Both the position numbers and the translations under genes were made by a program. Below the pieces are notes generated by a model. It made no database searches and had not been told where the DNA came from. It saw only the letters and a program-made list of their open reading frames with translations. From Chitinophaga sancti (GTDB lineage Bacteria > Bacteroidota > Bacteroidia > Chitinophagales > Chitinophagaceae), in assembly GCF_034424315.1 (NCBI RefSeq), contig NZ_CP139972.1, positions 1,860,001 through 1,924,000 of the forward strand: a DNA stretch of 64,000 nt. Reading direction: 5' to 3'. Below, in pieces: positions 1,734 through 12,951 of this stretch (position 1 is the stretch's first letter; every line of letters begins with the position of its first letter).

Positions 1734-3029
1734 TCACCGTACATCCTTCAGGTCTACATCCACCTTATCTCCATCTTTACGGATCCTTACTTTCATCTCT
1801 ATTTCGGCAGTCGCCCCGGTTGATGCATTGGCTGTATTATAAACATTATTAGATGACAACACTGCCCCACTCGGATGCATCAGGTAGGAAGTTCCTGCAT
1901 AATAACTGTAAGAGTACTGATGCGTATAACCAAAAGTGGTGATCAATATATACTCACCCGGCATCAGGTTTGTAAACTCAAAATGCCCTTTATCATCATA
2001 CACAGTCGTCTTCCTGATACAATCCGATACATTTGGATCGATCGGTACCTGCGGCAACTTATTCTTTTTGGCGATCTTCTTATTGACCGCCTTCCATTCT
2101 TCCAGGTAGTCTGAATTAGGAATGATAGACACAACTGTGCCTTTGGGTGCATACTGCGCCCTGTTAATGTTCACCACAGCTACCTTGCTCCTGCCATGAT
2201 CCCTGGCAAAAGCAGTACCTGTGATTACGCTGTTTCCTTTCTCTAATTGCTGCAAAGACAATTCCTTGTCAAACCTGGCAGCGATGGGCTGATAATCCAG
2301 TTCCTCATTTACACATACTTCCGTTATCCCCCCTCCGGCAGGCATTTCACGCTGCCAGATGCGGTGATCTTTTTTATCTATGATGTAGGTGTAAACAGCA
2401 CCGCTTTCCTCCTCCAATACACTTACCAGCCAGGTTTCGTGATTCCCTGTTTTAGGAGAGCGATGGATATAGCTTTTTACATCTTTAATGATGTAGTTGG
2501 ATAATATACTATCCGGGTTATTAACGTAGTAAAATTCACGGATCGTTGCCTTGTAACCTACATCCAGGGGCAAGGTGGTAAAGAGCAATTCAGCTACATT
2601 GAAATCGACAAATTTACCAGCGGGTTTCATGGAGATCTGCTTGTCCTTATCGCCATTCAGGAAATGATTTTTGCCGGTGATATTGGCTCCAAAACTCAGC
2701 TCCAGTATACTTTTAGTTCCTTCTGACTTATAGCTCAGTGGTTCCAGTGTTGTTGCATTGGCTACAGAGGTTCGTTTTTTATACCGCTCATTTTTTTCAT
2801 CCTTGTAGTCGGTCACCAGTTTCAGCTCATTCCCAAGAATTGTTACATCATTTGTATAAGTACCCTTATTCGTCCAGGTTGTACCTTTTACATAATAGAT
2901 AGTGAACAATGTTCTTTCGGATTTTAAGCGGGAAGTGTTGATGTCCGGGCTGCCGGGAAAAATGGTTTTTTGTCCGAAGCTGGCAATAGGAAATAACAAT
3001 AGACATATAGGTTTCAATAAAGTGCGCAT
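1734..3029 (-). CDS. Secreted protein with C-terminal carboxypeptidase-regulatory-like fold
   Basis: The ATG at 3029 gives 431 residues beginning with a clear signal peptide (MRTLLKPICLLLFPIASFGQ). The longer frame from 3065 would bury that signal, so the later start is preferred. The first 250 residues are beta-rich and resemble DUF3108-type lipoprotein-like domains (RTLFTIYYVKGTTW, AELLFTTLPLDVGY). Residues of about 275-400 contain an Ig-like CarboxypepD_reg-type pattern (TTVYDDKGHFEFTNLMPGEY) of the kind found in Bacteroidota surface proteins. Export to the periplasm or surface is likely; the function is unknown. It lies 65 bases after the Rrf2 gene of the upstream operon with no visible terminator between them, so read-through is possible. 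A strong terminator follows. Confidence 0.75.
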   Translation of the reverse strand: MRTLLKPICLLLFPIASFGQKTIFPGSPDINTSRLKSERTLFTIYYVKGTTWTNKGTYTNDVTILGNELKLVTDYKDEKNERYKKRTSVANATTLEPLSYKSEGTKSILELSFGANITGKNHFLNGDKDKQISMKPAGKFVDFNVAELLFTTLPLDVGYKATIREFYYVNNPDSILSNYIIKDVKSYIHRSPKTGNHETWLVSVLEEESGAVYTYIIDKKDHRIWQREMPAGGGITEVCVNEELDYQPIAARFDKELSLQQLEKGNSVITGTAFARDHGRSKVAVVNINRAQYAPKGTVVSIIPNSDYLEEWKAVNKKIAKKNKLPQVPIDPNVSDCIRKTTVYDDKGHFEFTNLMPGEYILITTFGYTHQYSYSYYAGTSYLMHPSGAVLSSNNVYNTANASTGATAEIEMKVRIRKDGDKVDVDLKDVR

Positions 3030-3094
3030 GGGTCCTTGTTTACGTGCAATAATCTGAAAGGGCAAAAATACTCAATTAAATGATATTTTAACTA

Positions 3095-3526
3095 CTACCC
3101 TATCAGGTACGCCACTCCGCTATTTACCGGCTCACGTAAATCTTCGATCCGCTTCGTATTAAATAACTGTTCTACCAGCTCCCTCGCTACCTTATATTCA
3201 TGGTGGATCGGACAGGGTCGCGTAGCCGAACACTTACTCAGGCCCAGTCCACACTCCTTAAACACCTGTCTGCCATCTATCGCATCCACAATAGCCATGA
3301 CCGGCTGTTTCATCTGCTCCCCGGAAATATAAAACCCACCTGCCGGCCCTTTCATACTCCTGATCACCCCTTGCTTTACCAATACCTGCAGCATCTTGCC
3401 CACCGTATGCTCACTGGCACCTATACACTCCGCAATTTCTTTAATACCCGCATTCTCCCCGCTATTATGTCTGGACGACAAATAAATTGCCGCCTTAATA
3501 GCCATCTTACATGTGAAGCTAAGCAT
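3095..3526 (-). CDS. Rrf2-family transcriptional regulator (NsrR/IscR-like)
   Basis: This 143-residue protein has the Rrf2 architecture: an N-terminal winged helix (about residues 5-70, including IKEIAECIGASEHTVGKML and the wing GPAGGFY) and a cysteine patch at C92, C99 and C105. In IscR and NsrR, cysteines at this site hold an Fe-S cluster that senses iron-sulfur status or nitric oxide. The spacing here, C-x6-C-x5-C, differs slightly from E. coli IscR. Family knowledge suggests a cluster-dependent repressor or activator. As the last gene of a six-gene operon it probably controls its own operon; that is inferred from context. The gene starts 4 bases after the stop of the DUF59 gene. Confidence 0.88.
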   Translation of the reverse strand: MLSFTCKMAIKAAIYLSSRHNSGENAGIKEIAECIGASEHTVGKMLQVLVKQGVIRSMKGPAGGFYISGEQMKQPVMAIVDAIDGRQVFKECGLGLSKCSATRPCPIHHEYKVARELVEQLFNTKRIEDLREPVNSGVAYLIG

Positions 3527-3530
3527 CAGA

Positions 3531-3845
3531 TTACCTGTTTAAAAATTCCTGACCTTCTGCTGATATCATTTCCATACTCCATGCCGGTTCAAACGTCACT
3601 GTTATCTCAATAACATACTCCGGGTAGGACAATTCCAGCCTGCTTTTCACTGAATCTACGATTGACTGCCCCATCGGACAATACTGTGTACTCAAAGTCA
3701 TTAGCACCAATATCTTCTTTGCATCTTCATCCACACTGAGTTCATAGATCAAACCCATATCTACCACATTCAATCCTACTTCAGGATCAAATACCCATCG
3801 CAACGCAGCAAGCGCTTCAATGGCTTTTTCCGTATGCGCGATCAT
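3531..3845 (-). CDS. SufT-like / MIP18-family (DUF59) metal-sulfur assembly protein
   Basis: A 104-residue protein with the DUF59 signature: DPEVGLNVVDMGLIYE near residues 20-35 and a conserved cysteine at position 56 (LSTQYCPMG). Members of this family (SufT, PaaD, human MIP18) help mature or repair Fe-S proteins. The start codon overlaps the stop of the upstream membrane-protein gene by four bases (3842-3845), which indicates translational coupling. Next to an Rrf2 Fe-S regulator and stress-type partners, a role in repairing clusters damaged by nitric oxide or oxygen is plausible but inferred. Confidence 0.85.
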   Translation of the reverse strand: MIAHTEKAIEALAALRWVFDPEVGLNVVDMGLIYELSVDEDAKKILVLMTLSTQYCPMGQSIVDSVKSRLELSYPEYVIEITVTFEPAWSMEMISAEGQEFLNR

Positions 3846-5113
3846 AGCATAATGTCTTTATGAAAGAGTAATTTAAAAACGTTCGCATTATAAAGAAAAG
3901 CACACAGCAATAATAACAGCGCACCTGTCTTCATCGCCAATCCATTTGGAATAACAATACCTGCCGCAAAAACAAAAAATCCAATTATAAAACAAAGGGC
4001 CATACTATTAAAAAGCTTACTGCTAAAGAGTTCTTTCGGGGATGGTGTCGCCCCTGTTCCCGCCCTGGCATGATATACCTTGTTCCAGATAATAAATGGC
4101 AACGTCTTAAAAGTCATACCTAAAATAATGGCCGTCAACCACCCAAAGAAAATCGTAAAACCATAAGCCAGCACCAGGTGTACATCTGTAGAAAAAGAGA
4201 TAAGCGTGACGATGACCGCAATCAAAAAGACCAGTGGCAATACCATCATCATTACAGCGAGCAGGGAGATCTTCATTTCTTCGTCTATCTGTCTGCGGAT
4301 CCTTACGTGGTAAGCCTTCCTGCAATAGATTCCAAACAACACAATGGCCAGTGCCACACACACTACAGGAATCATATAAAACACCAGCGGCGCATCTTTC
4401 AGGAAAATAAAAATAAACGCAATCAGTCCACCATTGATCAGGCCGTAGCTACTCCATAGTATACGGGGATGCTCGTATTTAGAGATCAGGAACATGGGGA
4501 TCAGGCGTGAACCTACTCCAATCACCAACAGTAAAAACCATCCTGCTATCCCTACATGTGCATGCAGGGAAAGATAATGCAGTGAACCATCCGGCAGTAA
4601 ATTCTCCGTAAAATTACAGATCAGTAAACCACCTATCAGCGTAGTAAAAACAAGCCAACCCGTAGCTGTAAGCATAAAGATCGCCTGTATATTTTCCTTC
4701 TTCGTCTTTACAATGCTCATCACTACATTCACAAAAAACACCAACACACCCGCATTGATCAGCAATGCACCATACTTTGCCGGCCAACCCATATCAAAAA
4801 TATAAAAGGCCCATACTAACAACACAATACCAATTCCCGTAAATACAAACGCCAGGTAAGCCAGCTTAACACTATACAATTCCCCCTCAATCAATACCGG
4901 CAATAACTGGTGACTTGCCCCCAAAATAATCATGGTACCCCATCCCAGCGCCATCGTATGTGTAATAGCCAGGATATGCGGCTGGAAGTAGTGGCCCGAA
5001 AACTCCCCGGAACTGGTAAACAACATGAGGGTAGCGATGAGAAATGCAAGCCCCGCGTATACATAAAATGGTACCACCACGCGATGGGTAGTGGTGTAAA
5101 TAACATCACTCAT
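3842..5113 (-). CDS. Polytopic NnrS / haem-copper-oxidase-like membrane protein
   Basis: A 423-residue protein with about twelve hydrophobic helices. Conserved-looking histidines stand in membrane segments near the N-terminus (H41, H46, H52, H68; motif ITHTMALGWGTMIILGASHQ) and in the middle (LSLHAHVGIAGWFLLL, about residues 178-200). This pattern recalls the COX1-like and NnrS families, in which histidines bind haem or metal and which are linked to nitric-oxide metabolism or resistance. It lacks several oxidase-specific segments, so a true terminal oxidase is unlikely. It overlaps its neighbours on both sides (TGATG with the DUF2249 gene, ATGA with the DUF59 gene) and is therefore part of the same operon. 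The exact substrate is unknown. Confidence 0.72.
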   Translation of the reverse strand: MSDVIYTTTHRVVVPFYVYAGLAFLIATLMLFTSSGEFSGHYFQPHILAITHTMALGWGTMIILGASHQLLPVLIEGELYSVKLAYLAFVFTGIGIVLLVWAFYIFDMGWPAKYGALLINAGVLVFFVNVVMSIVKTKKENIQAIFMLTATGWLVFTTLIGGLLICNFTENLLPDGSLHYLSLHAHVGIAGWFLLLVIGVGSRLIPMFLISKYEHPRILWSSYGLINGGLIAFIFIFLKDAPLVFYMIPVVCVALAIVLFGIYCRKAYHVRIRRQIDEEMKISLLAVMMMVLPLVFLIAVIVTLISFSTDVHLVLAYGFTIFFGWLTAIILGMTFKTLPFIIWNKVYHARAGTGATPSPKELFSSKLFNSMALCFIIGFFVFAAGIVIPNGLAMKTGALLLLLCAFLYNANVFKLLFHKDIML

Positions 5114-5901
5114 CAGTTCCTGAAAATTAATAGGTGTACTTCATCACTTGCAAGCTCCTTTGCCCTGTACTCAAATCCACGCTGCGCCAGTTCGGGTAAC
5201 AGAAATACCGGGATCCGTTTATGATAGACAAACAAGGCCTTATCTTCCGGCAAGGTATCCAGGCTCTCCAGGATGGTATGCATTGGCAAGGGCATCTGCA
5301 ATGCACGCACATCAATTGTTTGCAATTTGTTTTCAAATCTTTTCAATGCTTCCTCCCAGTTACCCGCCTGCACTTTTATATTGATGTCAGCATTTTTATA
5401 AAACCAGGTTTCTACCAGGTCCTCTTCGATGTGGTCTGCATATGCCTCAAAACCCTGTTTCTTCAATAAGATCATTAAAGGCGTTGGTTCGAATGTGTTG
5501 ACTATTTTTAAAACCTGCCCGGCCTGGATCGTTTTGATTGTTTGCAGGATGAGACTCAACGGATCTTCTCCTGCAGCAATAACAGGGCGCACATCGAGTA
5601 CCACTACCTGTTCCTCATCTAACGATTGAATAAACGCAGGCAGTTCCTGTTCTTCTGCTGCATTAGCAGGTATAGCAGGATCAATTTCAAATCCCAGCGG
5701 AGCTAGTTTCGTATAAAAATCAGTTACCTGGCAGCCTCCAATCTTACTGGCCATAGCAATGGTTGCACGGCCAGCCATGAGTTTTCTCAGGATGGGATTG
5801 CGCAGTTTCTCAAATTTCGGTGAAATGCTAACGATAGCATCCAGCGACGCCGGGTGATGTTTTAAGATGGCACCTATTTTTGTATTTTGATGAATGATCA
5901 T
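5113..5901 (-). CDS. DUF1858-DUF2249 protein
   Basis: This 262-residue soluble protein has three parts. Residues 1-75 match the DUF1858/ScdA-N type (HQNTKIGAILKHHPASLDAI). Residues of about 95-170 form a DUF2249 unit (VVVLDVRP, VLKIVNTFEPTPLMILLKKQ, VETWFYK), a TusA-like alpha/beta fold. Residues 175-262 form a second, more diverged DUF2249 unit (TIDVRALQMPLPMHTILESL, HVYHK-like segment, EVHLLIFRN). Such proteins occur with hemerythrins, ScdA/Ric iron-repair proteins and nitrite or NO genes. It sits 2 bases after the hemerythrin stop and overlaps the membrane-protein start by one base. The molecular role is unknown; sulfur or iron delivery is an inference from the fold. Confidence 0.82.
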   Translation of the reverse strand: MIIHQNTKIGAILKHHPASLDAIVSISPKFEKLRNPILRKLMAGRATIAMASKIGGCQVTDFYTKLAPLGFEIDPAIPANAAEEQELPAFIQSLDEEQVVVLDVRPVIAAGEDPLSLILQTIKTIQAGQVLKIVNTFEPTPLMILLKKQGFEAYADHIEEDLVETWFYKNADINIKVQAGNWEEALKRFENKLQTIDVRALQMPLPMHTILESLDTLPEDKALFVYHKRIPVFLLPELAQRGFEYRAKELASDEVHLLIFRN

Positions 5902-5903
5902 GT

Positions 5904-6347
5904 TCAGTTCTTTCTTCTGTTGGTGTGTTGTAACAATTGCTCCTGGTCTGCTGCACTCATATGTTCCTGCATATAATTAAAAAGCGTTCTCTCTTCAAAA
6001 CGGATATGTGCCTCCAGCAGATCTCCAAACTGCTGAAGCAGGGCCTTATCTGTCGTAGTTCTTTTGATCGATGCAATCAGGTTACAGATCGCCCTGTGCT
6101 CCCCTTCAGCCTGCTCACGCAATGGGTCTGCAGCATCCAGCTTACTAAACAAATAATCTTCTTCCTCTTTAAAATGCGCCTCCAGTTCATCATCGAAAAA
6201 CTCAATTACATATTTGCTGATCTTATCTGCGGGACTTACTTTCGCCAGGTCCTGCCTTATTTTCCAAACCAGTAATAAGCCAAAGTGGTGATCTTTGGAA
6301 AGTTGTATAAATGCTTTACTTCGCTTAATGGGTGTAGGCTTCTCCAT
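5904..6347 (-). CDS. Hemerythrin-domain protein
   Basis: A 147-residue four-helix protein with a hemerythrin-type ligand set: H20/H21, H58 with E62 (HFKEEE), H84 (EHRAI), and H114 with E118 (HIRFEE). This pattern binds a di-iron centre that can hold oxygen or nitric oxide, or act as iron donor in Fe-S repair (as in Ric/YtfE, which has an additional ScdA-N domain). Here the DUF1858-like domain is on the next gene rather than fused. The start overlaps the end of the DGC gene by 23 bases, which points to translational coupling. No signal peptide is present, so it is cytoplasmic. Confidence 0.88.
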   Translation of the reverse strand: MEKPTPIKRSKAFIQLSKDHHFGLLLVWKIRQDLAKVSPADKISKYVIEFFDDELEAHFKEEEDYLFSKLDAADPLREQAEGEHRAICNLIASIKRTTTDKALLQQFGDLLEAHIRFEERTLFNYMQEHMSAADQEQLLQHTNRRKN

Positions 6348-6693
6348 TGATTGATTTTTTTAACGCTTCCAGAATTACATTCGCCTGTTCCTGGTCAAAA
6401 TCCTCATGCTGTCTTTTGGACACACCCATACGGGATAGGTCCATCTCCAGGTCAGGTTGCAGGGAGTGATTAGCCAGGCATGCTTTGGTACAAGCCAGGG
6501 GGCAGCCATCTATGGCGATGATCTTTCTGCCACTCAGGGCCGTTTTGACCAGTTTCTTTACATTTCCGCCCACTCCTGCAATGCAGGACATTTCAGCTAT
6601 ACCCTGTCTGTCCAGTTGAATCGCCAGGTAATTAGCCATTTGCGCAGCACTGGAACAACCCGAGCAGGAATAAACAAGAGGAATTTTTTCCAT
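6325..6693 (-). CDS. DGC-family putative zinc-binding protein
   Basis: From the ATG at 6693 the protein has 122 residues; the longer frame needs a TTG at 6726 and adds eleven residues. It contains C10 and C13 (YSCSGCSS), C37, and the family motif IAIDGCPLACTKACL with C64, C68 and C72. The Asp-Gly-Cys motif and four or more conserved cysteines define the DGC family, suggested to bind zinc. Its function is unknown; members often lie near respiratory or redox genes. As first gene of the operon it marks the promoter side (6694-6760). On the minus strand a TACTTTTA element, close to the TAnnTTTG consensus, lies about 20 bases upstream of the ATG. Confidence 0.8.
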   Translation of the reverse strand: MEKIPLVYSCSGCSSAAQMANYLAIQLDRQGIAEMSCIAGVGGNVKKLVKTALSGRKIIAIDGCPLACTKACLANHSLQPDLEMDLSRMGVSKRQHEDFDQEQANVILEALKKSINGEAYTH

Positions 6694-6711: not shown

Positions 6712-6864
6712 ATAAAAGTACCGCAATACTTCTATGTACTGAATGATGAGGGTCAGGGAGAAAGGAAACTACTGTCAGGTGACCTGTCTGATGTACAGGA
6801 TCTTATATCCCACTATTTACGGGAGAATCAGGCTCCTTTCTTCGACCCGGATATACTTGGATAA
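6712..6864 (+). pseudogene. Short protein-like frame lacking a standard start
   Basis: The plus-strand frame ending with TAA at 6864 reads like genuine protein (QYFYVLNDEGQGERKLL, then a stretch ending APFFDPDILG) with codon use resembling neighbouring genes. There is no ATG, GTG or TTG in frame close to the beginning of this stretch; the only candidate near position 6712 is ATA. Further upstream the frame runs antisense through the DGC gene and looks random. It may be the remnant of a small gene or a small gene with an unusual start. It overlaps the promoter region of the divergent DGC operon. Confidence 0.3.
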
Positions 6865-6889: not shown

Positions 6890-6940
6890 CACGATAAGGT
6901 CACTTCAATATCCAATCGATATTGAAGTGACCTTATCGTG
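6890..6940. repeat. 23-bp perfect inverted repeat (long hairpin)
   Basis: Arms 6890-6912 and 6918-6940 are perfectly complementary over 23 bases, separated by a 5-base loop (CAATC). No T-run follows on either strand, so it is not a standard terminator. It could end transcription of the small plus-strand frame, form a regulatory hairpin, or be a remnant of a palindromic element. Confidence 0.85.
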
Positions 6941-7589: not shown

Positions 7590-10500
7590 CTACGCTACCG
7601 GCGTAAACTCTTCCGCCTTCCAGGTCGCCATGTTCTCATAACTCTTATACCGCAGATCCACCAGCTCCTGCGCCAATCCCATCAATCGCTTCGCCTCAGT
7701 CGGATTCGCTGCCGCCAGCGCCTTGTACCTCGTCTCATTATAAGCATAGTCCGCAAACTTCACCGCCGGCCTTGGAGAATCCAATACAAAAGGATTCTTA
7801 CCCGCCTCCCGCAATGCCGGATTATACCTGATCAAAGGCCAATATCCACTGGACACCGCCAACTGTTGCTGCGTCAATCCTTTCTCCATATCTATACCAT
7901 GCGCTATACAGTGACTATATGCCAGGATCAGTGAAGGTCCTTTATAAGCTTCTGCCTCACGCATTGCCAGTAAAGTTTGCTGCGGGTTCGCACCCATCGC
8001 AATCTGCGCTACATATACATTCCCATAAGAGATTGCCTGCATGGCCAGATCTTTCTTACCCACCTTCTTACCAGCTGCTGCAAACTTAGCAATAGCCGCC
8101 GTTGGCGTTGCCTTGGACATCTGTCCACCAGTATTGGAATACACCTCTGTATCCAGCACCAGTATATTTACATTACGTCCTGTAGACAACACGTGATCCA
8201 GACCTGATGAACCAATATCATATGCCCATCCATCACCACCCAACAACCACACACTTCTCTTCACCAAATGATCTGCTACCGCCATCAACTGCGCGGCCAG
8301 CGTATTTCCACGCAATGCCTGCAATTTATCTTTCAGCACAGCTACCCTGTTCCTTTGTTCCAGGATCTGTGATTCCAGTTGTTGCGGCGCATGCAGCAAT
8401 CCTTCTACCAGGCCATCATCATTCAGCTCCGCTTGCAGTGATACCAGCAATGCATGTGCGATTGAAAACTGCTTATCTGCTGCTACACGCATGCCTAATC
8501 CAAACTCCGCATTATCTTCAAAGAGAGAATTAGACCATGCCGGACCACGATTATCCTTGTTCACAGACCAGGGTGTAGTAGGCAGGTTACCACCATAAAT
8601 AGATGAACAACCCGTTGCATTCGCTACCAGTAATCTATCGCCGAACAACTGTGTCAGTAATTTCACGTAAGGTGTTTCTCCACAACCGGAACATGCACCG
8701 GAAAACTCAAACAAAGGTTCCAGGAACTGCGCCCCTCTCACCGTTGAGAAATCCAGCTCTGCACGATTGTTCACCGGCATACTTTCAAAGAAGCGGATCT
8801 GCTCACGGCCCTCCACCAGGGATGGTTTCGGTGCCATGTTGATCGCCTTGCGGCTGGCATCTTTGATATCTACCGCAGGACAAGCCTGTACACACAATTT
8901 ACAACCCGTACAATCTTCAAGATATACCTGCAATGTATACCGTGTTTCAGGGAAACCCCGGGCATTGATCGGCGCTGAAGGGAACCCTTCCGGCGCTTTC
9001 TCCAGGTAGCTTTCATGATAGAATTTGGAACGGATCACACTATGCGGGCACACAAAACTACAGTTACCACACTGGATACAGCTGTCTGATTCCCATACAG
9101 GCACCACATCTGCAATATTCCTTTTCTCCCATTTCGTAGTACCGCTGGGGTAAGTACCATCTATCGGCATCTTGCTCACCGGTATCAGGTCACCCTTTCC
9201 TTCCAGCAACATCGCCGTTACATCCTGTACAAAGGCAGGTGCTTCCGCAGGTATACCTGCATCCATTGGCAATGTACTGGTAGCCTTCGCAGGCAATTCC
9301 ACACGTAACAGGTGTTCCAGCGTATCATCTACCGCACGGTAGTTCTTTTGTACGATGGCTTCACCTTTTGACTTGTAAGATTTATAAATGAATTTCTTGA
9401 TCTGCTCTATCGCTTCATCAGCCGGCAATACATTGGACAATGCAAAGAAACAGGTCTGCATAATCGTATTGATACGCTGCCCCATACCAGCGGCTATTGC
9501 CACCTTGGAAGCATCGATCACATACAGCTTCATTTGTTTCTCTATCAGTTGTTCCTGTACAGCACGTGGCAGATGATCCCATACTTCACCGGCAGGATAC
9601 GGACTATTCAGCAGGAAGGTAGCACCAGGCCGCGCACTTTGCAACATATCCGTTTTACTGATAAAGTTGTATTTGTGACACGCAATAAAATCTGCCTTGT
9701 CTACCAGCCATGGGGCCAGAATAGGATCCTTACCAAATCGTAAGTGTGAAACAGTCATCGTACCTGACTTACGGGAATCGTATACAAAATATCCCTGCGC
9801 ATACAGATCCGTTTCTTCACCAATGATTTTAATACTATTCTTATTCGCACCCACAGTACCATCCGCACCTAATCCGTAAAACAAAGCACATACCCTGTCT
9901 TTCGGTTCCAGGTGGAAAGATGGATCAAAACTGAGGCTGGTATGCGTCACATCATCATTGATACCAATCGTAAAACCATGTTTGGGTGTGGCTTTCTTCA
10001 GTTCATCCAATACAGCTTTCGCCATTGCTGGTGTAAACTCTTTGGAAGACAAACCATATCTGCCGCCAATAATACGGGGCAGTTTTTCCAAACGGCCTTC
10101 TGAATACGCCTGGCAGAGATAAGTAACCACATCCTGGTACAAAGGTTCGCCGGAAGCACCGGGTTCTTTTGTACGATCCAGTACTACGATTTTCTCAACC
10201 GTAGCAGGTAATGCGTTTAATAAATGTTCAGCAGAGAATGGGCGGAATAATCTCACCAGCACCACCCCTACTTTTTCACCGGCTTCCAGCAGCACCCGTA
10301 CTGTTTCTTTCAGTACCTCACCACCGGAACCCATTACAACAGCAACTCTTTCTGCTTTCTCATGACCATAATATTCAAACAGTTTGTACTGACGACCCGT
10401 CAGGGCTGCGAACTGGTTCATGGCATCTTCCACAATACCCGGTGCTGCTGCATAAAAAGGATTCACCGTTTCCCTGCCCTGGAAATATACATCCGGGTTC

Positions 10501-11171
10501 TGCGCAGTACCTCTGATAAAAGGACGATCAGGATTCAGGCTGCGAAAACGATGTTCGTTCACCAGCTCATCACTGATCATACTTTTGATCTGTGCGTCAG
10601 GGATCAGTTTAATTTTATTGATTTCATGCGAAGTACGGAATCCATCGAAGAAGTGCATGAAAGGAATGCGTGCTTTGAGGGTAGCTGCCTGGCTAATGAG
10701 TGCCAGGTCATGCGCCTCCTGTACAGAAGCAGAAGCGAGCATGGCAAAACCAGTGGTACGGGCTGCCATCACATCACTATGATCGCCGAAGATGGACAAA
10801 GCCTGCGCAGCGAGTGACCTTGCAGCCACATGAAACACAGCACAGGTCAGCTCTCCGGCTATCTTGTACATATTAGGCAACATCAGCATCAAACCCTGTG
10901 ATGCTGTAAATGTAGTAGTCAAAGCGCCAGCCTGCAAAGAGCCATGCACCACACCGGCAGCACCACCTTCACTTTGCATCTCTATTACGTCCGGCACCTG
11001 GCCCCAGATATTTTTTAATCCTGCAGCAGCCCATTCATCTGCCAGTTCAGACATGGTAGAAGAAGGCGTGATCGGATAAATTGCACATACTTCATTAACG
11101 CGATAAGCGATATAGGCCACGGCTTCATTGCCGTCCAGTGTTGCTATAACAGGTGTAATCTCTTGTGACAT
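7590..11171 (-). CDS. nifJ: Pyruvate:ferredoxin (flavodoxin) oxidoreductase
   Basis: The ATG at 11171 gives 1193 residues, the usual length of the fused homodimeric enzyme; the longer open frame from 11378 runs into the upstream gene. The enzyme converts pyruvate and CoA to acetyl-CoA and CO2, passing electrons to ferredoxin or flavodoxin. Visible parts in order: N-terminal domain with IYPITPSSTMSE (about 31-42), gamma domain, two 4Fe-4S motifs (CIQCGNCSFVCP near 695 and CTGCKLCVQACP near 752), the proximal-cluster cysteines (CSGCGETPY near 824) and the thiamine diphosphate motif GDGWAYDIG (near 977) followed by YSNTGGQMSK. It starts 13 bases after the GltD-like gene, so the two form an operon. 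Confidence 0.96.
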   Translation of the reverse strand: MSQEITPVIATLDGNEAVAYIAYRVNEVCAIYPITPSSTMSELADEWAAAGLKNIWGQVPDVIEMQSEGGAAGVVHGSLQAGALTTTFTASQGLMLMLPNMYKIAGELTCAVFHVAARSLAAQALSIFGDHSDVMAARTTGFAMLASASVQEAHDLALISQAATLKARIPFMHFFDGFRTSHEINKIKLIPDAQIKSMISDELVNEHRFRSLNPDRPFIRGTAQNPDVYFQGRETVNPFYAAAPGIVEDAMNQFAALTGRQYKLFEYYGHEKAERVAVVMGSGGEVLKETVRVLLEAGEKVGVVLVRLFRPFSAEHLLNALPATVEKIVVLDRTKEPGASGEPLYQDVVTYLCQAYSEGRLEKLPRIIGGRYGLSSKEFTPAMAKAVLDELKKATPKHGFTIGINDDVTHTSLSFDPSFHLEPKDRVCALFYGLGADGTVGANKNSIKIIGEETDLYAQGYFVYDSRKSGTMTVSHLRFGKDPILAPWLVDKADFIACHKYNFISKTDMLQSARPGATFLLNSPYPAGEVWDHLPRAVQEQLIEKQMKLYVIDASKVAIAAGMGQRINTIMQTCFFALSNVLPADEAIEQIKKFIYKSYKSKGEAIVQKNYRAVDDTLEHLLRVELPAKATSTLPMDAGIPAEAPAFVQDVTAMLLEGKGDLIPVSKMPIDGTYPSGTTKWEKRNIADVVPVWESDSCIQCGNCSFVCPHSVIRSKFYHESYLEKAPEGFPSAPINARGFPETRYTLQVYLEDCTGCKLCVQACPAVDIKDASRKAINMAPKPSLVEGREQIRFFESMPVNNRAELDFSTVRGAQFLEPLFEFSGACSGCGETPYVKLLTQLFGDRLLVANATGCSSIYGGNLPTTPWSVNKDNRGPAWSNSLFEDNAEFGLGMRVAADKQFSIAHALLVSLQAELNDDGLVEGLLHAPQQLESQILEQRNRVAVLKDKLQALRGNTLAAQLMAVADHLVKRSVWLLGGDGWAYDIGSSGLDHVLSTGRNVNILVLDTEVYSNTGGQMSKATPTAAIAKFAAAGKKVGKKDLAMQAISYGNVYVAQIAMGANPQQTLLAMREAEAYKGPSLILAYSHCIAHGIDMEKGLTQQQLAVSSGYWPLIRYNPALREAGKNPFVLDSPRPAVKFADYAYNETRYKALAAANPTEAKRLMGLAQELVDLRYKSYENMATWKAEEFTPVA

Positions 11172-11184
11172 AGTAGTGGTTGAT

Positions 11185-12807
11185 TTACGGTCCGGGCACC
11201 ATTTCGATAGCATGGCAGGAACACTGCTCGCTACATACTGCGCAACCGGTGCAAATATCATAATTGAAGGAATAGCCATTGCCGGGGCCGAGCTTTGTGA
11301 TTGCTTTTTGCGGACAGGCACCAAAGCAACCATCGCACTCAAAACAATTACCACAGGACAGACATCTCCGGGCTTCAAACAATACTTCGTTTTCCTGCAG
11401 ACCGTACTTTACTTCATCAAATCCACCAATGCGTTCTGCTGCAGGCTTCATAGCCTGCTCACCCTGTGGCGCATAAGTGCGATACCAGCGATGCAGTTTT
11501 TCATAACCTATCACCGGAGGTTTAGCAGATGGTGTATACACCTCATCATTCAGGAAAGCGTCTATATTACGCGCGGTCTTTTTACCATGACCGATAGCTG
11601 TGGTCACGTTTCTTTGACCAGGTACCATATCACCACCCGCAAAAATGCCCGCATAACCAGTCATCATACTGCTGTCTACACAAACATTATCATCCGGTGT
11701 GAATGTAATACCAGGTATATTTTTCAGGAACCCAGTATCTGCTTCCTGGCCCAGGGCCATGATCAGACTATCTGCTTCCAGTGTTTCAAACTGACCTGTA
11801 GGGTAAGGTTTGCCATCTTTCAGCTCCATCACTTCTACCGTCATTGTCATGCCTTCCACTGATTTAATGGAACGCAGCCAGTGTATGTTTACACCTTCTT
11901 CCAAAGCTTCCTGCGCTTCGAAATCATGTGCACTCATATTGGCCCTGTCACGACGATAAATAATCATGGTATCTTCCACACCCAGCCTTTTTGCTGTACG
12001 GGCAGCATCCATCGCAGTATTACCACCACCATAGATTGCTACACGACGGCCAAGTTTGGGTACGTTGCCATCTTCTACCTGCTTCAGAAAAGCAAGTGCA
12101 TCCATCATTTTAAAGGCATCCTTTGCAGGGAGATCTACTTTCTTAGAGAGGTTAGAACCGATTGCAAGAAAAACAGCATCAAATTTCCCCTGCTCTTTTT
12201 CGAGCAGCAGGTTTTCTACTTTATGATTGTATTTTACAGTCACGCCCATATTACTGATACGCGCTACCTCCTGGTCCAGTTCATGGCGGGGTAAACGGTA
12301 AGCGGGGATGCCAAAGTGCATCATACCGCCTGCAATGGGTCCTGCTTCATGTATTTCTACCGTATGTCCTTTTCGCACTAAATGATAGGCAGCTGAAAGG
12401 CCTGCTGGCCCTGCCCCAACGATGAGCACACGCTTGCCCGTAGGCGGCGCCTTATCGATGGTCCAGCCCTGCTTCAGGGCTTCATCTCCCAAAAATCTTT
12501 CTACAGCGTGGATGTTGACAGCACTGTCAATTTGCGAACGGTTACATTGTACCTCGCAGGTGTGATAGCATACCCTGCCCATGACGGCGGGAAATGGATT
12601 GTCTTCCATGATCGTGCGCCAGGCAGCTTCATAACTGCCAGCCTGAGCCAGCGAGAGCCATCCCTGGATGTTTTCGCCTGCTGGGCAGGTTTGGTTACAG
12701 GGTGGCAGCAAATTGGCGTATACAGGATGTTGTGTCCTTGTAGGTCCAGTGCCAGCGCTGTGGCTTTGCAGATCAGGCGATAAGGTAATATCCTGATTTG
12801 TTTTCAT
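11185..12807 (-). CDS. GltD-like NAD(P)/FAD oxidoreductase with ferredoxin domain
   Basis: From the ATG at 12807 the protein has 540 residues. It carries an N-terminal cysteine region (C37, C41, C80, C84, C88) that binds Fe-S clusters in glutamate-synthase small subunits, an FAD-binding loop VLIVGAGPAGLSAA (about 127-140), an NAD(P)-binding loop YGGGNTAMDAAR (about 255), and a C-terminal ferredoxin domain with CGNCFECDGCFGACP (about 480) and CTGCAVCSEQCS (about 522). Glutamate synthase beta subunits lack this ferredoxin tail, and no large GltB subunit is nearby. The position directly before nifJ suggests it moves electrons between NAD(P)H and the ferredoxin reduced by NifJ, but that is inference. 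Confidence 0.86.
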   Translation of the reverse strand: MKTNQDITLSPDLQSHSAGTGPTRTQHPVYANLLPPCNQTCPAGENIQGWLSLAQAGSYEAAWRTIMEDNPFPAVMGRVCYHTCEVQCNRSQIDSAVNIHAVERFLGDEALKQGWTIDKAPPTGKRVLIVGAGPAGLSAAYHLVRKGHTVEIHEAGPIAGGMMHFGIPAYRLPRHELDQEVARISNMGVTVKYNHKVENLLLEKEQGKFDAVFLAIGSNLSKKVDLPAKDAFKMMDALAFLKQVEDGNVPKLGRRVAIYGGGNTAMDAARTAKRLGVEDTMIIYRRDRANMSAHDFEAQEALEEGVNIHWLRSIKSVEGMTMTVEVMELKDGKPYPTGQFETLEADSLIMALGQEADTGFLKNIPGITFTPDDNVCVDSSMMTGYAGIFAGGDMVPGQRNVTTAIGHGKKTARNIDAFLNDEVYTPSAKPPVIGYEKLHRWYRTYAPQGEQAMKPAAERIGGFDEVKYGLQENEVLFEARRCLSCGNCFECDGCFGACPQKAITKLGPGNGYSFNYDICTGCAVCSEQCSCHAIEMVPGP

Positions 12808-12951
12808 AATATGTGAAGGTATTATGAGCGCAAAGGATAAAACGTGCTTTAAATCATAAGAGATGGTGATAATGATCAATAAAGAGGCGAAAATGAACTA
12901 TTTTGGAATAAAAACAGGGGCGCTCACTTTAAATGTCCGTTTGACAGGAAG

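What the first reader, a model, noticed from the sequence alone, without database searches (positions are those of the whole stretch)
3095..6693. Six-gene overlapping operon combining DGC, hemerythrin, DUF1858-DUF2249, NnrS/COX1-like, DUF59 and Rrf2
The genes overlap or lie within 4 bases, so they act as one unit. All parts relate to iron, sulfur or nitric oxide: a hemerythrin with full ligand set, an Rrf2 regulator with C-x6-C-x5-C, a SufT-like assembly protein, a histidine-rich membrane protein, and two families without known function (DGC, DUF2249). The ScdA-N/DUF1858 domain fused to two DUF2249 units, while the hemerythrin is separate, looks like a split and rebuilt Ric/YtfE system. The role of the DGC protein as first gene is undescribed as far as I know.
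Basis: partly seen in the sequence, partly recalled or inferred. Interest (0 to 1): 0.7.

Follow-up and report, generated by a model that had tools for sequence, protein, structure and literature searches.

The report
Self-regulated nitric-oxide response operon, Chitinophaga variant
Six tightly packed genes in a soil bacterium look like a small kit for coping with nitric oxide and damaged metal centres, probably switched by its own regulator; related bacteria carry versions of the kit, but this one lacks the usual repair gene and has a redox-sensitive protein in front.

Summary
The six genes and their overlaps are real. The core (DrpB-like DUF1858-2xDUF2249, 12-helix membrane protein, DUF59, Rrf2) recurs in Bacteroidota: DrpB-like 79, DUF59 78, Rrf2 73 of 80 kept loci. 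A RIC-type repair protein sits upstream in 70 of 80, so the "split and rebuilt RIC" reading fails: the window's operon simply lacks RIC, and the genome has one in a nosZ cluster. Gene 3 has the domain plan of Thermus DrpB (33% identity). DGC is a homologue of Pseudomonas AnvM (52%). The membrane protein has the oxidase/NO-reductase fold without a His-His pair and is not NnrS by sequence. A 24-bp palindrome lies at the operon start, the only such place (up to 3 mismatches) in the 8.4-Mb genome; in 195 family genomes it tracks the operon-type Rrf2 (24 of 27 versus 13 of 168). Best reading: an NO/denitrification protection operon controlled by its own three-cysteine Rrf2. DGC is a minority member (6 of 80). 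NO as signal and all biochemical roles are inferred.

The parts
6712..6735 (.). 24-bp palindromic site, on the - strand ATAGAAGTATTGCGGTACTTTTAT (18 of 20 consensus positions), ends 18 nt before the DGC start codon
   Evidence: Motif found upstream of the operon in relatives; only place in the own genome at up to 3 mismatches
6325..6693 (-). DGC (PF08859) protein, AnvM-like, 122 aa; Cys37 aligns with the redox-sensitive Cys44 of AnvM
   Evidence: AlphaFold2 model pLDDT 82.6
5904..6347 (-). Stand-alone hemerythrin-like di-iron protein, 147 aa, ligand positions kept
5113..5901 (-). DrpB-like protein: DUF1858 + two DUF2249, 262 aa
3842..5113 (-). 12-helix membrane protein with heme-copper-oxidase-superfamily fold, conserved His but no His-His pair
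3531..3845 (-). DUF59 / MIP18-type Fe-S assembly factor with invariant Cys56-Pro57 (76 copies)
3095..3526 (-). Rrf2-family regulator with invariant C-x6-C-x5-C; proposed binder of the 6712-6735 site

Best explanation
The operon is a nitric-oxide / denitrification protection unit controlled by its own last gene. Proposed working: the Rrf2 protein carries an iron-sulfur cluster on its three invariant cysteines and binds the palindrome at the operon start; NO (or loss of the cluster) releases it and the operon is expressed. The products then deal with nitrosative damage: the hemerythrin binds iron/NO, DUF59 and the DrpB-like protein hand cofactors or sulfur/iron to damaged or new metalloenzymes, and the 12-helix protein, with the fold of oxidase/NO-reductase subunit I but no His-His pair, is a membrane heme/NO-handling partner of the DrpB-like protein. 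The AnvM-like DGC protein is a redox-responsive cysteine protein brought under the same control in some Bacteroidota; in the window's lineage it and a short hemerythrin head the operon and the RIC repair gene found there in 70 of 80 relatives is missing, while a RIC is encoded in a nosZ cluster of the same genome. Shown here: gene order, conservation, the site, its co-occurrence with this Rrf2 type, neighbourhoods, residue conservation, predicted fold. Inferred: NO as signal, cluster on Rrf2, that Rrf2 binds the site, repression rather than activation, and all biochemical roles.
For: Core order in relatives: 79/80 DrpB-like, 78/80 DUF59, 73/80 Rrf2, median gaps 1, -4, 2 nt; RIC-type gene upstream in 70/80; NosZ, NirK-like or NorB-like genes in 20/80 loci. 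DrpB-membrane protein-DUF59 beside nosD/F/Y-like genes and NosZ in L152 and L153. Related modules outside Bacteroidota: R. etli p42f between norCBQD and nirK; the Thermus drpAB locus (no nar gene within the 12-kb flanks of that record, but the paper PMC6282519 places drpAB behind nar and finds that its loss alters nitrate reductase expression and activity; passages read). Site: 72 places at >=17/20 in 67 of 81 loci, 0 in reversed strings; one place in own genome; present with the operon-type Rrf2 in 24/27 genomes vs 13/168 without it, Fisher 2.5e-18. G150 (L204) and G315 (L222) have site + RIC + Rrf2 with no DrpB, membrane protein or DUF59 in the fetched stretch, and in G347 (L210) a paralogous Rrf2 has a site with other neighbours. 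A nirK-like gene stands first behind a 17/20 site in G381 (L208). Own genome: two NosZ, two NO-reductase-like genes, RIC.
Against: No expression, binding or mutant data. 60 of 80 loci have none of the three scored denitrification gene clusters in the fetched stretch (35 of the 51 loci of 17 kb or more). At <=2 mismatches the site is not commoner than its reversed control over the phylum sample (21 of 247 genomes each) and only modestly over the family sample (37 vs 24 of 195); the control numbers are my count of the printed tables. The 149-bit limit for 'operon-type' Rrf2 was set after seeing the list, and Rrf2 and site mostly belong to one operon, so co-inheritance explains much of the association; within the 66 loci usable for it the link is not significant (p 0.28). 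In the window the site is only 18 nt from the ATG and no TAnnTTTG box follows it, unlike 52 of 65 sites, so promoter geometry there is unclear. DGC is in only 6 of 80 loci.
Confidence: 0.65

Rival explanations
1. General iron-sulfur / iron homeostasis operon (SUF/IscR-like logic), with NO only a secondary cue.
For: Among specific NCBIfam models DUF59 and Rrf2 score best with SUF-associated ones (TIGR02945 73 bits, TIGR02944 50.8 bits); hemerythrin, DUF59 and a cysteine Rrf2 all fit iron.
Against: Both scores are below the curated cut-offs (143.4 and 110.65). Neighbours are nos/nir/nor-type genes in 20 of 80 loci and in R. etli; a site also precedes a nirK-like gene (L208) and lies between RIC and a cytochrome c-nosZ pair in G291 (L225).
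Confidence: 0.2
2. A nitrate/nitrite-sensing signalling unit like Thermus DrpAB, acting on expression or maturation of respiratory enzymes rather than on damage.
For: Gene 3 is a full-length homologue of DrpB with the same three domains; DrpA/DrpB mutants misregulate nar and make poorly active NarG (PMC6282519, passages). The Thermus locus also has relatives of the membrane and DUF59 genes.
Against: No separate single-DUF2249 (DrpA-like) gene in the window's operon; a linked Rrf2 and site are present here and can occur without DrpB (L204, L222). NarG was sought only by a BLAST label in 42 later loci (none shown) and not in the 80, so absence of nar genes is barely tested.
Confidence: 0.25
3. 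Split and rebuilt RIC/YtfE system.
For: Hemerythrin and a DUF1858 domain lie in separate adjacent genes.
Against: RIC-type proteins coexist with the same DrpB-like gene in 70 of 80 loci; the own genome has a RIC above the curated cut-off (220.8 vs 204.7); DUF1858 and ScdA_N are different Pfam families.
Confidence: 0.03

Closest known systems
Thermus thermophilus DrpA/DrpB locus (PMC6282519; plasmid NZ_AP025604)
   Same: DrpB = DUF1858 + 2x DUF2249, 33% identity over the full length; the Thermus locus also carries a partial-length relative of the membrane protein and DUF59
   Different: Thermus has DrpA, a protoglobin and a neighbouring Crp/Fnr regulator; no Rrf2 or DGC is annotated in the stretch and no palindrome was found in it; its hemerythrin gene is on the other strand
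Rhizobium etli p42f nor-nirK region (NC_007766)
   Same: DUF2249 - membrane protein - second DUF2249 protein - DUF59 in a row
   Different: Second DUF2249 protein is only 176-178 aa; no Rrf2 or DGC annotated there; NnrS is present as a separate protein
RIC / YtfE / ScdA / DnrN iron-sulfur repair proteins
   Same: Found upstream in 70 of 80 relatives
   Different: Absent from the window's operon; the five relatives' RICs scanned carry one to five extra N-terminal DUF2249 domains
Pseudomonas aeruginosa AnvM (PA3880; PMC6650552)
   Same: Same DGC family, 52% identity; redox-sensitive Cys44 is conserved as Cys37; AnvM is described as highly expressed without oxygen
   Different: AnvM lies next to narXL but is not in their operon and is described as an Anr/MvfR-binding regulator; no metal was detected in protein dissolved from inclusion bodies
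NsrR regulons (PMC1274295)
   Same: Rrf2-family regulator and palindromic sites before dnrN/RIC and, in some species, nirK and norB
   Different: Site here is ATAAAAGTAT-N4-ATACTTTTAT, not gATGyAT-N5-ATrCATc; NsrR model score 26.3 vs cut-off 182

Membership tests
RIC / YtfE (TIGR03652) | ScdA_N plus hemerythrin domain in one protein, above the curated cut-off | tested here: not met
   Gene 2 scores 18.7 vs 204.7; gene 3 has DUF1858, no ScdA_N
DrpB-like | N-terminal DUF1858 and two DUF2249, full-length similarity | tested here: met
DrpB-like | Role in nitrate-respiration control | not testable with these tools
   Needs mutants
AnvM / DGC family (PF08859) | DGC domain above cut-off, conserved cysteines including AnvM Cys44 | tested here: met
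   115.8 vs 27 bits; Cys37 invariant in 18 aligned sequences
NnrS | Sequence match to the NnrS family | tested here: not met
   No Pfam match at E 0.1; profile comparison with three NnrS gave 17 columns, probability 5%
Heme-copper oxidase superfamily (fold) | 12-helix subunit I fold | tested here: met
Heme-copper oxidase superfamily (catalytic) | His-His pair for the active-site metal (recalled) | tested here: not met
   No HH dipeptide in the protein; invariant His in 36 aligned sequences are 41, 52, 184, 186, 418 only
NsrR | Score over the NsrR model and gATGyAT-N5-ATrCATc site | tested here: not met
   26.3 vs 182 bits; different site
Rrf2 Fe-S sensors in general | Rrf2 domain plus three conserved cysteines (recalled) | tested here: met
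   Cys92, 99, 105 invariant in 74. The cluster itself is not testable here
SufT / SUF-associated DUF59 | Score over TIGR02945 or TIGR03406 | tested here: not met
   73 vs 143.4 and 70.8 vs 202.6 bits

The most novel reading that the evidence does not exclude
A DUF2249 protein (DrpB-like in Bacteroidota and Thermus), the oxidase-fold membrane protein without a His-His pair and DUF59 form a so far unrecognised membrane-bound machine that repairs or matures metal cofactors of NO-exposed respiratory enzymes; such trios or pairs were seen in loci of four phyla (Bacteroidota, Deinococcota, Pseudomonadota, Campylobacterota). AnvM-type DGC proteins are its redox-gated soluble partner, and the operon-type Rrf2 with its palindrome is a new NO-response regulator of Chitinophagaceae and relatives.
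Probability: 0.3. Interest if true: 0.7.

Novelty: new variant of a known kind. Interest (0 to 1): 0.5.

Why it matters
DUF2249 and DGC proteins recur in denitrification regions but are mechanistically open; only two papers of the held library mention DUF2249. The operon ties a DrpB-like protein, an oxidase-fold membrane protein, DUF59, RIC and AnvM-type proteins to one regulator type and one DNA site, which makes their shared function directly testable in a harmless soil bacterium. If Rrf2 binds the site, it gives a group of bacteria that carry nosZ a concrete candidate NO-response switch.

Tried and rejected

DGC neighbourhoods in other Bacteroidota: by BLAST labels 4 of 10 fetched DGC stretches (L136, L137, L140, L141) have denitrification-type neighbours and 6 of 10 do not (L138 and L143 only generic matches; in L145 my profile did not find the DGC again). 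In plasmids 30 records matched DGC and I read 7: three stretches have nar/nos/nor-type genes, three do not (55 has a DUF2249 gene and sufB, 104 a narL at its edge, 105 nothing), one has no annotation (106).

Rrf2-site linkage inside the 80 loci: not significant (66 loci with both flanks used, 14 dropped). In the evenly drawn loci L146-L155, the 4 with Rrf2 directly behind the core have a 16-19/20 site at the RIC start; none of the other 6 has one before RIC or DrpB, L151 has a 16/20 one at its Rrf2 start (small and related sample). Of the 3 Rrf2-bearing family genomes without a site at <=2 mismatches, two have a 17/20 site (G381, G357) and in G402 the operon start lies beyond the contig end. 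Of the 13 genomes with a site but no such Rrf2 I inspected three: in G291 it lies between RIC and cytochrome c-nosZ, two look like chance. Rfam: no match in the window.

Labels: gene-cluster names rest on one exemplar each plus the annotated R. etli NorB and NirK, which fall in the same clusters. The NirK exemplar is below its NCBIfam cut-off (183.9 vs 296.3), NosZ above (937.6 vs 625), NorB-like matches Pfam COX1. NosD/F/Y-like names come from position and recall (the NosY-like exemplar matched no NCBIfam model). qNorB is named from length and recall (Pfam COX1 200 bits; no NCBIfam match). In some searches my reference called cNorB_own was by mistake a piece of a neighbouring gene; it labelled only one ORF (L207), and the cNor-like gene is identified and its match to the NorB-like cluster.
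Full report
What is there. The window is bases 1,860,001-1,924,000 of a single 8.42-Mb contig; the best named protein relatives are Chitinophaga. On the - strand six genes run 6693-3095 with overlaps or gaps of at most 4 nt apart from one 23-nt overlap. Domains: DGC; hemerythrin; DUF1858 + 2x DUF2249; a 423-aa membrane protein without a Pfam match; DUF59; Rrf2.

Conservation. A scan of the 84,980-species genome collection with a profile of the membrane protein confirmed 197 loci, of which the best 80 were kept, so the sample leans to close relatives; by their titles they are Bacteroidota (not looked up one by one). In these the DrpB-like gene lies directly upstream in 79 of 80, DUF59 directly downstream in 78 of 80 and Rrf2 after it in 73 of 80, with median gaps of 1, -4 and 2 nt. 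A gene of about 320 aa upstream in 70 of 80 is DUF2249 (one to five copies) + ScdA_N + hemerythrin, i.e. a RIC-type protein (five examples scanned). A separate hemerythrin is upstream in 31 of 80 and DGC is present in 6 of 80. An evenly drawn sample of 247 Bacteroidota genomes, the window's included, has a DrpB-profile match in 31, 13 of them full length, and DGC in 10; 7 of the 10 DGC genomes are among the 31 (Fisher 2.3e-5; the window's genome counts in both and relatedness is not corrected).

DGC. It is 52% identical to P. aeruginosa AnvM. AnvM Cys44, reported as the most oxidation-sensitive cysteine of that proteome, falls on the invariant Cys of the AEMSC motif, Cys37 here. AnvM is described as highly expressed without oxygen and as binding Anr and MvfR in two-hybrid tests; no metal was found in protein dissolved from inclusion bodies (PMC6650552, outline and passages; a correction, PMC7554671, was seen in the listing only). 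DGC neighbours elsewhere include NnrS-hemerythrin-DGC with ytfE and norR in Ideonella and nosZ, hemerythrin and NnrS in Cupriavidus; 4 of 10 other Bacteroidota DGC stretches have such neighbours, 6 do not. In this operon family DGC appears in several layouts: site-DGC-Hr-DrpB (window, C. silvisoli L006), site-DGC-c19-RIC-DrpB (C. alhagiae L009), site-DGC-RIC-DrpB (G322, L209), site-RIC-DGC-c19-DrpB (L056), after Rrf2 (L043), as a separate gene with its own 17/20 site (Terrimonas L026), and as a DGC-GNAT fusion upstream (L031). In these DGC-bearing loci the site stands before DGC or before the operon to which it belongs, apart from L031, where DGC is a distant upstream gene without a site of its own.

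The regulatory site. Upstream regions of 73 of 81 operons (8 dropped at contig ends) gave a strong dyad, consensus ATAAAAGTAT-N4-ATACTTTTAT. At 17 of 20 positions there are 72 places in 67 of 81 loci (80 plus window) and none in the reversed sequences; 63 loci have it just before an operon-type gene, and of 69 loci that hold the RIC start 59 have it there. A TAnnTTTG box (Bacteroidota promoter element, recalled) follows within 60 nt in 52 of 65 sites, with 39 boxes 12-14 nt behind the site, against 97 of 4050 random windows; this would put the site over the upstream promoter element. The window's copy, 6712-6735, is the only place in its genome at up to 3 mismatches (six chance hits for the reversed pattern), but it lacks the box and ends 18 nt before the ATG.

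Who binds it. In 195 family genomes, 27 have an operon-type Rrf2 (>=149 bits; the next match has 131 bits, and the limit was set after seeing this gap) and 37 have the site at <=2 mismatches, against 24 with the reversed control (my count); 24 genomes have both (13 of the 168 others have the site; Fisher 2.5e-18), in 21 of these 24 within 5 kb on one contig. Site and Rrf2 belong to one operon, so co-inheritance alone could give much of this, and over the phylum sample the bare site is no commoner than its control (21 of 247 genomes each). More telling are loci where they part from the rest: G150 (L204) has site-RIC-Rrf2 beside NosZ and nosD/F/Y-like genes, and no DrpB match in the genome; G315 (L222) has site-RIC-Hr-lipoprotein-Rrf2, without DrpB, membrane protein or DUF59 in the fetched stretch; G347 (L210) has a paralogous Rrf2 with a site and neighbours that match none of my labels; in G253 the operon has the site while the nearest Rrf2 relative lies on another contig. 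The simplest reading is that this Rrf2 binds this site. Its three cysteines are invariant in 74 copies.

Link to NO. NosZ, NirK-like or NorB-like genes are in 20 of 80 loci (16 of the 51 loci of at least 17 kb); with about four such genes per genome I would expect about one locus by chance (my estimate, no control run). In G381 (L208) a nirK-like gene is first behind a site; in G429 (L217) a site precedes cox2/COX1-like genes. The window's genome has two NosZ, a qNor-like and a cNor-like gene, and a RIC in a NosZ-nosD-F-Y-like cluster; only a weak NirK match was found (32% identity).

Verdict. A real, conserved operon with a linked regulator and site, whose parts all occur in NO/denitrification settings; the window shows a Chitinophaga variant without RIC and with AnvM-like DGC in front. 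The kind is known (NsrR-like local control of NO-protection genes); the combination, regulator and site did not turn up in my literature searches, which cover open-licence papers only. NO sensing and the biochemical roles remain inference.

Noticed in passing
window 6890-6940: Perfect hairpin (22-nt arms, 7-nt loop) between the operon and the divergent GNAT gene; single in the window.
   Followed up: partly
window 7590-12879: A 1262-aa pyruvate:ferredoxin-oxidoreductase-like ORF and a 564-aa GltD-like Fe-S oxidoreductase ORF lie upstream; members of the same two clusters are beside the operon in C. silvisoli L006. Function names from reading the sequence, no family scan made.
   Followed up: partly
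window 1734-3065: A 443-aa ORF starts 29 nt behind Rrf2 on the same strand and is 86% identical in the same place in C. silvisoli; its cluster has only these two members among the loci examined.
   Followed up: partly
L037:10285-12093 and 8 other loci: A ~603-aa protein family whose exemplar has no Pfam or NCBIfam match recurs in 9 of 80 loci; one copy follows DGC behind its own site in L026.
   Followed up: no
L047:4969-6705, L078:4955-6931: RIC-type proteins with four and five tandem DUF2249 domains in front of ScdA_N-hemerythrin.
   Followed up: no
L004:12798-13232; L136, L137, L141, L153, L154: Small 144-154-aa proteins matching the membrane-protein profile, perhaps single oxidase-type units, in several of these loci.
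   Followed up: no
L205:5732-8879 (about G000:C1:7191731-7194878): A second Rrf2 (37% identical) with a truncated-globin-like gene and the qNor-like gene, without the palindrome.
   Followed up: partly
L031:2543-4069: DGC domain fused to a GNAT acetyltransferase domain.
   Followed up: no
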